From: Oscillospiraceae bacterium
GTDB lineage: Bacteria; Bacillota; Clostridia; Oscillospirales; JAAYOS01
DNA length: 64,000 nt
Direction: 5' to 3'
NCBI GenBank assembly: GCA_031264245.1
Contig: JAISEG010000005.1
Coordinates: 62,001-126,000, forward strand
Under the pieces are notes generated by a model, which made no database searches, was not told where the DNA came from, and saw only the letters and a list, made by a program, of their open reading frames with translations. The position numbers and the translations under genes were made by a program. Below, piece by piece: positions 1 to 57,092 of the stretch; the first letter of the stretch is position 1; every line of letters starts with the position of its first letter.

Positions 1-1360
1 TATACGCTCCGTATTTCTCATACATCTCATTCATCGCGTCACGCAGGTTTTTCCCCTTTTCGGCGTAGCTTGCCGCCATTTCGCATATCAGCATCGACGC
101 CGTAACCGCGTCCTTGTCCCGGCAATAATCCCCCACAAGATACCCGAAGGACTCCTCGTAGGAGAAGATATAATGCCTGCCCTCAGGCTCAAGCTCCCCG
201 ATCCTCTCCGCGATGAACTTAAAGCCGGTGAAGGTTTCCTCCACCTCAAGCCCGTAATTTTCGCATATCGCGTCTATCATGTCGGAGGAAACAATGGTGC
301 GTATGGCGTAGGACTTTTCCGGGATAGCGCCCATGCGCTTCCTTGCCGACGCGATATATTCAAGCAGCAGCGCCCCGGTCTGGTTGCCGCTGAGCAGCGT
401 ATATTCGCCGTCCCTTTCACGGAACATCAGCCCCACCCTGTCCGAGTCCGGGTCTGTCCCTATAATGATATCCCCGCCGTGCCTTTTCGCGTATTCCAGC
501 GCGAGAGTGTAGCCCACAGCGTACTCGGGATTTGGATTTGCCACCGTCGGAAAGTTTCCGTCCGGTATCATCTGTTCCGCCACCGGGATTATATTCTTAA
601 CCCCGATCCGCCTGAGTATCTCAGGCACAAGCCTGTAGCCCGCTCCGTGAAACGGAGTGTAAACCACCTTAAACTCATCAGCTATCCTCCCCACAGTCCC
701 CCTGTCGATTGACTGCCCGAGCGCGCACGCCAAAAATTCCTCGTCGGTCTCTCCCCCCAGCATGGTGATGAGCCCGCCGCTCACAGCGCGGTCAAAGCCG
801 GTGAGCCTTGCCCCGGTGAATATATCGGTGTCCCTTATCTCCGCTTCAACAATCCGCGCATGCTCCGGCGGCAGCTGCGCCCCGTCCTCCCAGTAGGCCT
901 TATATCCGTTGTATTCCTTCGGATTGTGCGACGCCGTAACATTGATTCCGGCAATGCACCCGTACCTTTTTATGGCAAAGCTAAGCTCGGGGGTGGGGCG
1001 CAGCCCGTCAAACAAAAATACCTTTATCCCGTTTGCCGCCAGCACGCAGGCAGCTTCACGCGCGAAGCGCTCGGAGTTTATCCGGCAGTCATACGCTATC
1101 GCCGCCCCGCGCTCCTCCCCGCCGTTCGCTTTTATAAGCTTCGCGAGGGCCTGGGTGGTCTGACGGATGACATAGATGTTCATCCGGTTAAGCCCCATCG
1201 CCATTACCCCTCTGAGTCCCGCGGTGCCGAACCCCAGCGGCGCGTAAAACCTGCTCTCCAGCTCCTTTTCGTTTCCCTCGAGCTGCAAAAGCTCGTTTCT
1301 TTCTTCCTCTGTCAATACGGGCGTTTCCAGCCACCTCCGGTACTCGTCATTGTAGCTCAT
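1..1360 (-). CDS. phosphoglucomutase/phosphomannomutase family enzyme, C-terminus cut by window edge
   Basis: This enzyme interconverts hexose 1- and 6-phosphates through a phosphoserine, feeding glycolysis or nucleotide-sugar synthesis in the cytoplasm. The visible 453 codons carry the three family signatures in order: the active-site serine loop TASHNPKEYNG, the metal loop GTDPDSDRVG and the sugar-recognition loop YEESFGYLVG. Length and order fit the large (about 570 aa) PgcA-like type. The start is taken at the ATG at 1360 (protein begins MSYNDEYRRWL), which aligns with the start supplied by the same hairpin element in front of the GntR gene; an in-frame ATG at 1372 is possible. The gene lies 172 bp downstream of rel on the same strand. 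Glucose versus mannose specificity cannot be read from sequence. Confidence 0.93.
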   Translation of the reverse strand, partial: MSYNDEYRRWLETPVLTEEERNELLQLEGNEKELESRFYAPLGFGTAGLRGVMAMGLNRMNIYVIRQTTQALAKLIKANGGEERGAAIAYDCRINSERFAREAACVLAANGIKVFLFDGLRPTPELSFAIKRYGCIAGINVTASHNPKEYNGYKAYWEDGAQLPPEHARIVEAEIRDTDIFTGARLTGFDRAVSGGLITMLGGETDEEFLACALGQSIDRGTVGRIADEFKVVYTPFHGAGYRLVPEILRRIGVKNIIPVAEQMIPDGNFPTVANPNPEYAVGYTLALEYAKRHGGDIIIGTDPDSDRVGLMFRERDGEYTLLSGNQTGALLLEYIASARKRMGAIPEKSYAIRTIVSSDMIDAICENYGLEVEETFTGFKFIAERIGELEPEGRHYIFSYEESFGYLVGDYCRDKDAVTASMLICEMAASYAEKGKNLRDAMNEMYEKYGAY

Positions 1361-1446
1361 ATCAACCGCCATTTCTCAGGCGACACAAAATAGTTGTGAA
1401 TTATGCGCACTCGTCATCCATCGCCTGAGAGATGATAAGCGGTTTA
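1358..1446 (-). promoter_or_regulatory. dispersed leader hairpin, copy A, overlapping the mutase start
   Basis: On the minus strand TCTCAGGCGA (1430-1421) pairs with TCGCCTGAGA (1383-1374). AACCGC (near 1445) pairs with GCGGTT (1369-1364), just upstream of the ATG at 1360. The loop shares ATTCACAACTA with copy B at 49239-49332. Copy B has AACCTC/GAGGTT where this copy has AACCGC/GCGGTT, so the pairing is kept although the bases differ. Here the stem is imperfect, with an internal loop next to the start codon. Its function is unknown; control of translation is an inference. Confidence 0.6.
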
Positions 1447-1459
1447 TTTTTTTAATATT

Positions 1460-1487
1460 TGATAGCGTGAATTTATTCACGCTATCA
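1460..1487. terminator. hairpin between rel and the mutase gene
   Basis: GATAGCGTGAAT and ATTCACGCTATC form a 12-13 bp stem with a 2-4 nt loop. On the minus strand it follows rel, but no clean U-run follows it, so it may be a processing or stability hairpin rather than an efficient terminator. Confidence 0.4.
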
Positions 1488-1544
1488 GTCCTTTTCCGCT
1501 TTGTTATAAGTTAGGGCACACCCCAATTATATACCGCCCGTTTG

Positions 1545-36892: not shown

Positions 36893-36978
36893 GCGGGTAT
36901 GGCGGAATGGCAGACGCGCATGGTTCAGGTCCATGTGCTCGCAAGGGCATGGAGGTTCAAGTCCTCTTACCCGCACCA
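36893..36978 (+). tRNA. tRNA-Leu(CAG)
   Basis: The acceptor GCGGGTA pairs with TACCCGC, and there is an encoded ACCA end. The anticodon loop TTCAGGT between CATGG and CCATG gives anticodon CAG. The long variable arm GTGCTCGCAAGGGCAT is typical of leucine tRNAs. The T arm GGTTCAAGTCC is intact. Confidence 0.95.
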
Positions 36979-48532: not shown

Positions 48533-48580
48533 TTTCCTGGCTGTATTAATCAATAATTATTGATTAATACAGCCAGGAAA
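48533..48580. terminator. perfect palindrome overlapping the gntR stop
   Basis: A 48-bp perfect palindrome built on TTTCCTGGCTGTATTAATCA contains the stop codon of the GntR gene (48564). It could terminate gntR or act as an operator upstream of the GH5-like gene, which starts 17 bp further on. Confidence 0.75.
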
Positions 48581-49241
48581 AATGATCCTTGATCGCCTGT
48601 ATCCCTTTTTCCCGGTCTCCATCGGTCAAAGCGTCGGCAATCGCGTGATGAAATTCCTGCAGGCGCTCAAATCCGGCAGTTTTCTTGGAAACCGTCTCAA
48701 GGAACACTTTTGACATGTATTCCGTAATGACATTGGAGAGCGCCTGAAAATTGATGGTGATCAGGGCATTTTGCGACGCTTCCACAAGCAAAGTGTGAAA
48801 CCGGTTGTCCAGGCTGATTCTCAGCCCGCTGTCCGCGGTTATATCCAGCAAATCGACAATTTGCCTCATCTCGGCTTTCTGGGCCTCGGTCGCGTTTTTA
48901 ATAGCCAGCTCAAAGGACTGAAGCTCCAGCATTTGCCTGAAAACGGTGAAGCCGTCGAAATCCACGATATCCCGAAGATACATGATCTTCATGATTTTGC
49001 CGAACGTTTTATCATAGGTGTTGGTTACATAGTTGCCGGAGCCATGGTTGCTGTCGACAAAACCCAAATAATTCAGCACCTTAATCGCTTCCCGGACTGT
49101 TGTCCGGTTTACCTTAAGCTGCTGCGCCAGAACTCTTTCGGGCGGAAGCCTGTCTCCGGCGTTGTATTCCTTCCTCTCCACCTGACCGATTACATAATCC
49201 ACAACAACTCCGCAGGCGGCGCTCGTCACAGGCTCTTGCAT
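48564..49241 (-). CDS. GntR-family (FadR subgroup) transcriptional regulator
   Basis: A 225-residue regulator with an N-terminal winged HTH (YNAGDRLPPERVLAQQLKVN, RTTVREAIKVLNYLGFV) and a C-terminal FCD all-helical ligand domain with the metal-ligand type residues D...R and H (LDNRFHTLLVEAS, LQEFHHAIADAL). It probably controls the GH5-like gene 47 bp downstream and itself. Its ATG lies directly at the foot of a 31-bp perfect hairpin and its GAGAGG ribosome binding site is inside the 3' arm, so translation should depend on opening the hairpin. Confidence 0.93.
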   Translation of the reverse strand: MQEPVTSAACGVVVDYVIGQVERKEYNAGDRLPPERVLAQQLKVNRTTVREAIKVLNYLGFVDSNHGSGNYVTNTYDKTFGKIMKIMYLRDIVDFDGFTVFRQMLELQSFELAIKNATEAQKAEMRQIVDLLDITADSGLRISLDNRFHTLLVEASQNALITINFQALSNVITEYMSKVFLETVSKKTAGFERLQEFHHAIADALTDGDREKGIQAIKDHFSWLY

Positions 49242-49332
49242 ATTAAACCTCTCATCATCTCTCAGGCGACAAGGTAGTTGTGAATCATACGCTCTATCAT
49301 CTGTCGCCTGAGAGATGATGAGAGGTTTAATA
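49239..49332 (-). promoter_or_regulatory. dispersed leader hairpin, copy B, enclosing the gntR ribosome binding site
   Basis: Arms 49241-49271 and 49302-49332 are exact 31-bp complements around a 30-nt loop. The arm nearest the gene ends GAGAGG-TTTAAT-ATG, so Shine-Dalgarno and start codon are in or at the stem. The loop shares ATTCACAACTA with copy A at 1358-1446. Confidence 0.8.
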
Positions 49333-49359: not shown

Positions 49360-49388
49360 ATTATAAATTGGTCTGGACAATTTGTCAA
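49360..49388 (-). promoter_or_regulatory. gntR promoter with palindromic spacer
   Basis: Minus strand: TTGACA (49388-49383), spacer AATTGTCCAGACCAATT, TATAAT (49365-49360). The spacer is itself a near-palindrome (AATTG...CAATT, with GTCC/GACC), similar to FadR-type operators, which suggests autoregulation. The rest of 49333-49566 is AT-rich with no gene. Confidence 0.75.
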
Positions 49389-56879: not shown

Positions 56880-56910
56880 TTAAAAAAACGCACCCACATA
56901 GGATACGTTC
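56880..56910 (-). terminator. leader terminator between TPP riboswitch and thiC
   Basis: Minus strand: AACGTATCC and GGGTGCGTT pair (with G-U pairs) around a 5-nt loop and run into TTTTTTT. This is where TPP binding would stop transcription. Confidence 0.75.
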
Positions 56911-56920
56911 GTAAAAACAG

Positions 56921-57003
56921 TGTTCCCTACGTTGGCATTACCCAAATCAGGTACGGTCAGTATCTATCAGATACTATCTCAGCCGGTCACACCAGCCCCC
57001 GAA
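56921..57003 (-). ncRNA. TPP riboswitch (THI element)
   Basis: Minus strand: GGGGGCTGGTGTGACCGGCT, then GAGATAGTATC, GACCGTACCTGATTTGGGTA and ATGCCAACGTAGGGAAC. These are the conserved pyrimidine- and pyrophosphate-sensor segments, with CTGAGA and ACCTGA. It controls the thiC-thiW-thiE-thiD operon by transcription termination at 56880-56910. Confidence 0.97.
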
Positions 57004-57092
57004 TATTAAGTTGTTTTTTATACAATAGCACAAATATATCAGCGTGTCAACATTAAACTTCCCCATAAAATTTCTGTGCTTTTTACCGTCAA

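What the first reader, a model, noticed from the sequence alone, without database searches (positions are those of the whole stretch)
49239..49332. Dispersed hairpin that supplies ribosome binding site and start codon to unrelated genes (copies at 49239-49332 and 1358-1446)
Seen: a perfect 31-bp stem with a 30-nt loop ends exactly at the gntR ATG and contains its GAGAGG site. A related, imperfect copy ends at the start of the phosphosugar mutase gene 48 kb away in the same orientation. The loops share ATTCACAACTA, and the stem base pair set AACCTC/GAGGTT in one copy is AACCGC/GCGGTT in the other, so pairing is kept while sequence changes. Inference: a structured leader that controls translation, or a mobile palindromic element that brings a translation start with it.
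Basis: partly seen in the sequence, partly recalled or inferred. Interest (0 to 1): 0.72.

Follow-up and report, generated by a model that had tools for sequence, protein, structure and literature searches.

The report
Mobile hairpin elements targeting gene starts
The two hairpins are copies of a small mobile DNA element, apparently a stripped-down relative of IS110-type insertion sequences, that lands exactly between a gene's ribosome-binding site and its start codon, hands the gene a replacement binding site, and does so in front of many unrelated (even essential) genes in several gut bacteria.

Summary
The window's own genome holds 13 copies, and five other Clostridia genomes hold 24 more. 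In 36 of 37 copies the 3' end is exactly the start codon of an unrelated gene in sense orientation (clpX, leuS, proS, alaS, tmcAL, thiT and others). The one exception is the upstream member of a tandem pair. Orthologs without the element start at the same codon with an ordinary Shine-Dalgarno (SD) sequence. Complete copies have the native SD just outside their other end. The element is therefore interposed between native SD and native start codon, and it supplies a substitute SD inside a hairpin whose pairing is kept by compensatory changes. It does not bring the start codon.

Two IMG/VR contigs carry a 1.7-kb IS110-family insertion sequence with the same end, also abutting an ATG. Junctions of the full IS and of complete short copies follow one rule: host-TA|element|TA-TG. 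Rejoining one IS's flanks restores an intact reading frame. The best explanation is a non-autonomous IS110-type element targeted to translation starts. IS900 is the precedent for that target. Short transposase-less forms with a built-in structured ribosome-binding site appear undescribed in the papers searched. Regulation by the hairpin is plausible but untested.

The parts
49239..49241 (-). native start codon (ATG) of the GntR/FCD regulator gene (48564-49241, -)
   Evidence: Pfam GntR 3.5e-14 and FCD 2.7e-19
49241..49332 (-). element copy w49k (hairpin part only): 31-bp arms 49241-49271 / 49302-49332, loop 49272-49301; the arm next to the ATG holds GAGAGG (substitute SD)
   Evidence: 75.7 bits
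49360..49388 (-). sigma70-type promoter TTGACA-17-TATAAT upstream of the hairpin, so the hairpin lies in the gntR 5' UTR; a GntR-type operator TTGGTCTGGACAA (49368-49380) lies in its spacer
   Evidence: read directly from the sequence
1358..1360 (-). native start codon of the phosphoglucomutase/phosphomannomutase gene (continues to position 2, -)
   Evidence: orthologs start at the same codon; Pfam PGM_PMM I-III
1361..1446 (-). element copy w1358, left-end (LE) hairpin half with GGCGG next to the start codon
   Evidence: 91.3 bits
1460..1487 (-). right-end (RE) palindrome of the same copy, TGATAGCGTGAATAAATTCACGCTATCA; element boundary at core TA (1483-1484), so the insert is about 1362-1482
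1376..1480 (-). short leader ORF (GTG start 1480-1478, 34 aa) that the native SD would now serve
1489..1495 (-). native SD (AAAAGGA) of the mutase gene, now about 130 nt from its start codon

Best explanation
Each hairpin is a copy of a non-autonomous, transposase-less relative of IS110-family insertion sequences. The element inserts at a TA-TG site that is a gene's start codon preceded by an SD, always in one orientation, and is left between duplicated TA dinucleotides: SD..TA|RE...LE|TA-TG gene (SHOWN by junctions). Its LE side ends in an SD-like sequence at normal distance from the start codon, so the host gene gets a replacement ribosome-binding site, while the native SD now faces a short GTG leader ORF in the RE (SHOWN as sequence; use INFERRED). 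Movement would need an IS110-type DEDD transposase and its guide (bridge/seek) RNA acting in trans (INFERRED). In the mRNA the LE folds so that the substitute SD is paired with a 5' arm, which can alternatively pair with the loop. Translation of the host gene is therefore probably reduced or conditional on unfolding, for example by a ribosome translating the leader or by RNase (INFERRED).
For: Dispersed copies: 13 in the own genome, 10 plus one degenerate in G059, 2 in G010 (41), 1 in G398 (51), 5 each in G473 and G741 (57, 58); 36 of 37 end at a start codon. Orthologs lacking it start at the same codon with an SD 5-9 nt upstream. Copies that keep the RE have left junction ..SD..TA|RYGTGAA in 11 of 12. 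In 464 kb of G000, 126 TATG sites are gene starts against 770 noncoding non-starts, and only 6.8% of all TATG sites have an SD. Two contigs share a 1675-bp, 94%-identical unit ending at ATG of different genes, with an IS110 transposase (PF01548 3e-22, PF02371 2.5e-19). In L165, joining the IS flanks at TA restores a continuous ORF. LE similarity to the IS is collinear (z = 18.8 for G741, 8.7 for G059 leuS, 3-4.5 for C9). Tandem junction LE-TA-RE in G059. Compensatory changes in 8 pairs, 0/500 shuffles.
Against: No IS110 transposase was found in the 464 kb of G000 examined, 39% of a 47%-complete assembly. The covariance model does not match the full IS ends, so the link for G000/G059 rests on about 20 nt of the loop, the ends and the shared junction rule. 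Several short copies (C7, C1_283, w49k, most of G059) lack the RE and the native SD, so their junctions cannot be checked. The full-length ISs also insert at internal TATG sites (L165), so start-codon specificity may partly reflect selection. Wobble pairs favour the gene-sense strand, opposite to the expected guide RNA.
Confidence: 0.8

Rival explanations
1. A genuine cis-regulatory RNA (translational switch) shared by a regulon: the 5' arm pairs either with the SD arm (off) or with the loop (on), and a ligand or protein decides. Spread between genes would be secondary.
For: The 5' arm has two alternative partners in most copies (29 of 34 with a helix of 7 or more), including G010 and G473/G741 where the sequences differ. 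Wobble pairs are 38:9 in favour of the gene-sense strand. SD2 is buried in the predicted fold.
Against: Target genes share no function and differ between genomes. Nine same-family genomes lack it while a more distant genome has it. No Rfam family matches. Precise TA junctions and IS110 carriers of the same end point to mobility. For the loop pairing alone, shuffles give no covariation support.
Confidence: 0.12
2. An unrelated short palindromic repeat (ERIC/RUP-like MITE of a DDE transposase) whose start-codon position results only from selection against other insertions.
For: Short, palindromic, multicopy, no transposase inside; no IS110 transposase seen in the part of G000 read.
Against: Orientation and position are exact in 36 of 37 copies, though noncoding non-start TATG sites outnumber start sites six to one. 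The ends match an IS110-family IS and give a TA core, not a DDE-type target duplication.
Confidence: 0.06
3. The ribosome binds the native SD and the folded insert brings SD and AUG together, so the insert is skipped during initiation.
For: Native SD is kept at normal distance from the junction in copies with the RE; similar hairpins between SD and AUG are known in phage T4 genes (own knowledge, not checked here).
Against: A substitute SD is present at the other end. Copies without the RE have lost the native SD, yet their genes, including clpX and leuS, remain intact.
Confidence: 0.02

Closest known systems
IS900 of Mycobacterium avium subsp. paratuberculosis (IS110 family)
   Same: Inserts in one orientation at a translation initiation site: target motif CATGNNNNNNTCTCCTT, the reverse complement of SD-N6-CATG, and carries a hed ORF on the strand opposite the transposase (PMC8141618; Doran 1997 cited there).
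   Different: IS900 is a full-length transposase-encoding IS. The copies here are about 120-190 bp with no transposase, use a TA-TG junction, end in a substitute SD within a hairpin, have at most a short leader ORF, and occur in Clostridia.
IS110-type IS in IMG/VR contigs L163-L167 (found here)
   Same: Same left-end sequence next to ATG, same RE start (RYGTGAA), same TA core and orientation.
   Different: About 1.7 kb with a DEDD transposase; not restricted to gene starts (L165 sits at an internal Met codon).
Bridge RNA / seekRNA-guided IS110 and IS1111 elements (IS621, ISEc21)
   Same: Core dinucleotide at both ends, long noncoding end upstream of the transposase, donor or cargo mobilised with transposase and RNA supplied in trans (PMC11208160, PMC11187229).
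   Different: No guide loops identified in the short elements; no activity shown.
Prokaryotic MITEs and palindromic repeats (ERIC, RUP, Rickettsia RPE)
   Same: Short, multicopy, palindromic, non-coding, near genes.
   Different: Those are not tied to start codons; none derived from IS110 is described in the MITE review searched (PMC10969869).

Membership tests
IS110-family mobile element (non-autonomous member) | DEDD (PF01548) + PF02371 transposase | tested here: not met
   Absent from the short copies, which is what non-autonomous means; present in the longer relatives with the same end. None found in 464 kb of G000.
IS110-family mobile element (non-autonomous member) | Core dinucleotide at both junctions, no long terminal inverted repeats | tested here: met
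   TA at the left junction in 11 of 12 RE-bearing copies and at the right junction in most copies; L165 empty-site reconstruction; tandem LE-TA-RE junction.
IS110-family mobile element (non-autonomous member) | Sequence-specific, orientation-specific target | tested here: met
   36 of 37 copies sense-oriented at start codons.
IS110-family mobile element (non-autonomous member) | Guide RNA with target- and donor-binding loops in the noncoding end | not tested
   Loops were not assigned; structure is conserved, but wobble pairs favour the opposite strand.
IS900-like targeting of translation initiation signals | Insertion between SD and start codon | tested here: met
   Native SD left of the junction and native start codon right of it.
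MITE (miniature non-autonomous element) | Short, multicopy, shares ends with an autonomous partner in the same genome | tested here: inconclusive
   Short and multicopy yes; partner found only in other contigs.
Known structured RNA / riboswitch family (Rfam 15) | Match to a covariance model | tested here: not met
   No relevant match for the window, G000, G059, G010, G398, G473 or G741 copies.

The most novel reading that the evidence does not exclude
A transposase-less IS110-type element that is aimed by its guide RNA at SD-start-codon sites and at the same time is a ready-made translational switch: in the mRNA its 5' arm pairs either with the substitute SD or with the loop, so that each landing places an unrelated gene, including essential ones, under the same post-transcriptional control.
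Probability: 0.2. Interest if true: 0.85.

Novelty: new variant of a known kind. Interest (0 to 1): 0.62.

Why it matters
It shows a mobile element solving the problem of landing on gene starts without killing the gene, by supplying its own ribosome-binding site, and it does so in front of essential genes in several bacterial families. It links the start-codon preference of IS900, known since 1997, to the RNA-guided IS110 mechanism and suggests that transposase-less donors exist in nature, as trans-mobilisation experiments predict. If the hairpin regulates translation, it is a natural route by which unrelated genes acquire a common control module, and it would mislead annotation of 5' UTRs and riboswitch searches.

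Tried and rejected
Integron attC or IS200/IS605-type hairpin: considered because of the asymmetric bulge; dropped, since no fixed tetranucleotide target or GTTRRRY core was seen. Known riboswitch or RNA family: Rfam negative. Coding extension VSPEKWRFNM upstream of the ATG: the frame is open in many copies but broken in others (w49k, w1358, C4_217, C1_25), and orthologs start at the ATG, so not needed. Exact 16-19-mer patterns in viral contigs gave mostly chance hits; only GGCGGCGGAATGGAGATT found true relatives. Plasmids: no hit. Shared locus conservation between G000 and G059: none found. IS110 transposase in 464 kb of G000: none. Covariation of the loop pairing on A3/A4: no excess over shuffles because the 5' arm hardly varies; support comes from slid controls, wobble bias and the more distant copies.

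Full report
OBSERVATION. The hairpin at 49239-49332 is real: 31 perfect base pairs, a 30-nt loop, ending at the gntR ATG. It folds far better than shuffles (z -12.7). The copy at 1358-1446 is its imperfect relative and ends at the start codon of a phosphoglucomutase/phosphomannomutase gene. A blastn search and a covariance model found 13 copies in the 1.2-Mb (47% complete) genome of the window.

POSITION RULE. In the own genome each copy, read in one orientation, ends exactly at a start codon. The genes are unrelated: GntR regulator, mutase, thiamine transporter, M42 peptidase, TmcAL-type nucleotidyl transferase, ACT-domain protein, DUF4097, RCC1 repeats, alaS and others (Pfam for some; the rest read by eye). 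A 22-nt pattern lacking the ATG found a termite-gut genome (Oscillospiraceae bacterium Th196P3bin70, G059) with 10 copies, among them clpX, leuS, proS, thioredoxin and a lacI-type gene, and an eleventh degenerate copy. Models extended to the order and class found two copies in G010, one in G398 in front of a hypB-like gene, and five each in G473 and G741. In total 36 of 37 copies end at an ATG, GTG or TTG that starts a long ORF. The exception is the upstream member of a tandem pair in G059. Nine other genomes of the same family have none, although they are closer to G000 than G059 is (mutase 63-65% versus 50% identity). The distribution is therefore patchy.

INTERPOSED, NOT INTRINSIC. Orthologs of alaS, the mutase, M42 peptidase, tmcAL and the ACT protein in relatives, and clpX, leuS and proS in G000, lack the element and begin at the corresponding codon with an ordinary SD. 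Copies with a second palindrome (RE) have the gene's native SD immediately outside it, e.g. AGAGGAGGAAATA|GCGTGAATAAA (C9) and ATAAGGAGGTTAATA|ACGTGAAAG (G473). The element thus lies between native SD and native start codon. A substitute SD (GGAG in G473/G741, GGCGG in G000/G059, GAGAGG in the 49239 copy) ends 5-7 nt before the start codon. For gntR a TTGACA-17-TATAAT promoter lies upstream of the hairpin, so it is part of the 5' UTR.

LINK TO IS110. A pattern from the G741 end, without the ATG, found two contigs that share 1675 bp at 94% identity and diverge exactly at ATG into different genes. The shared unit encodes, on the opposite strand, a transposase with PF01548 and PF02371. Further relatives gave more junctions. 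Full ISs and RE-bearing short copies obey one rule: host..TA|RYGTGAA ... LE|TA-TG. In L165 the IS splits a ribbon-helix-helix-type ORF, and joining the flanks at TA restores it. Left dinucleotide TA is present in 11 of 12 RE-bearing short copies. Loops of the short copies align with the IS left end at the same distance from the boundary: z = 18.8 for G741 and 8.7 for the G059 leuS copy; 3-4.5 for C9 against two of three ISs; not significant for the 49239 copy or the G010 copy tested. The covariance model itself does not detect the full IS ends.

TARGET. In 464 kb of G000, TATG occurs 4265 times; by a crude gene model 126 are start codons and 770 are noncoding non-starts; 6.8% of all TATG have an SD just upstream. 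If insertions were merely tolerated in noncoding DNA, about 14% would be at starts, so 13 of 13 in this genome has a chance of roughly 1e-11 (simple product, ignoring relatedness). Either the target includes the SD, as for IS900 (motif CATGNNNNNNTCTCCTT, PMC8141618), or unusually strong selection removes the rest. The full ISs do hit internal TATG sites, so both may act.

STRUCTURE. Across 23 copies the long stem pairs in 92.9% of cells, with eight pairs changed on both sides (0 of 500 shuffles). The 5' arm is also complementary to a loop segment: 94% paired against 26-55% when slid, mean helix 9.4 pairs with gene-sense wobble against 7.5 with the wobble of the other strand, 29 of 34 copies with 7 or more. 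G010 and G473/G741 keep this pairing with different sequences. Predicted folds bury the substitute SD; opening it costs about 13-40 kcal/mol, pseudoknot pairing not counted. This resembles a translational switch, but the loop pairing has no excess covariation by shuffles, and no expression data exist. The 49239 copy is exceptional: both arms have become perfectly complementary, consistent with template-switch correction of a quasi-palindrome (inference).

MECHANISM. Most likely a transposase-less IS110-type donor moved in trans. Published experiments show that a short donor, or cargo between IS ends, moves when transposase and guide RNA are supplied separately (PMC11208160, PMC11187229). No transposase was seen in the part of G000 read. 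The native SD now serves a short GTG leader ORF in most RE-bearing copies, 7-61 aa, reminiscent of the hed ORF of IS900, which also depends on host signals. Which strand is transcribed, and whether a guide RNA is encoded in the short form, is open.

KNOWN OR NEW. The kind (IS110 family, start-codon targeting) is known from IS900. Short derivatives with a built-in substitute SD were not found in the papers searched or in Rfam. I rate it a new variant of a known kind.

Noticed in passing
window 49360-49388 (-): gntR promoter TTGACA-17-TATAAT with the inverted repeat TTGGTCTGGACAA (GntR-type operator) in its spacer suggests autoregulation.
   Followed up: no
window 56907-57012 (-): TPP riboswitch (62 bits) plus tRNAs at 36893, 52604 and 62401.
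   Followed up: no
L012/L032 (G000:C1:283792-283881): Upstream M42-type peptidase gene reads into the element and stops at the same TAA, in the same frame, as the leader ORF of other copies; translation of the upstream gene could replace the leader.
   Followed up: partly
L058/L059 (G059:C3:31239-31463): Tandem pair of the element with a single TA between LE and RE, as expected for repeated insertion into the same core.
   Followed up: partly
L123 (G010:C17:29831-29936): A copy begins 14 nt after the 3' end of a bacterial large SRP RNA gene.
   Followed up: no
L135 (G741:C25): In this copy the leader ORF spans the whole element (61 aa) and overlaps the gene's start codon, like a miniature hed ORF.
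   Followed up: partly
L146/L164: The IS interrupts a capsid-like gene on the left, but its right flank is an unrelated gene; deletion or chimeric contig.
   Followed up: no
G473/G741 copies, e.g. L126:1470-1500: A strongly conserved GCCTCCGGCGGATTTA segment and a GCCCGTGCG..CGCACATGGGC hairpin lie between RE and LE in the long form; its reverse complement contains GGAGGCATAA, which could be a target guide.
   Followed up: no
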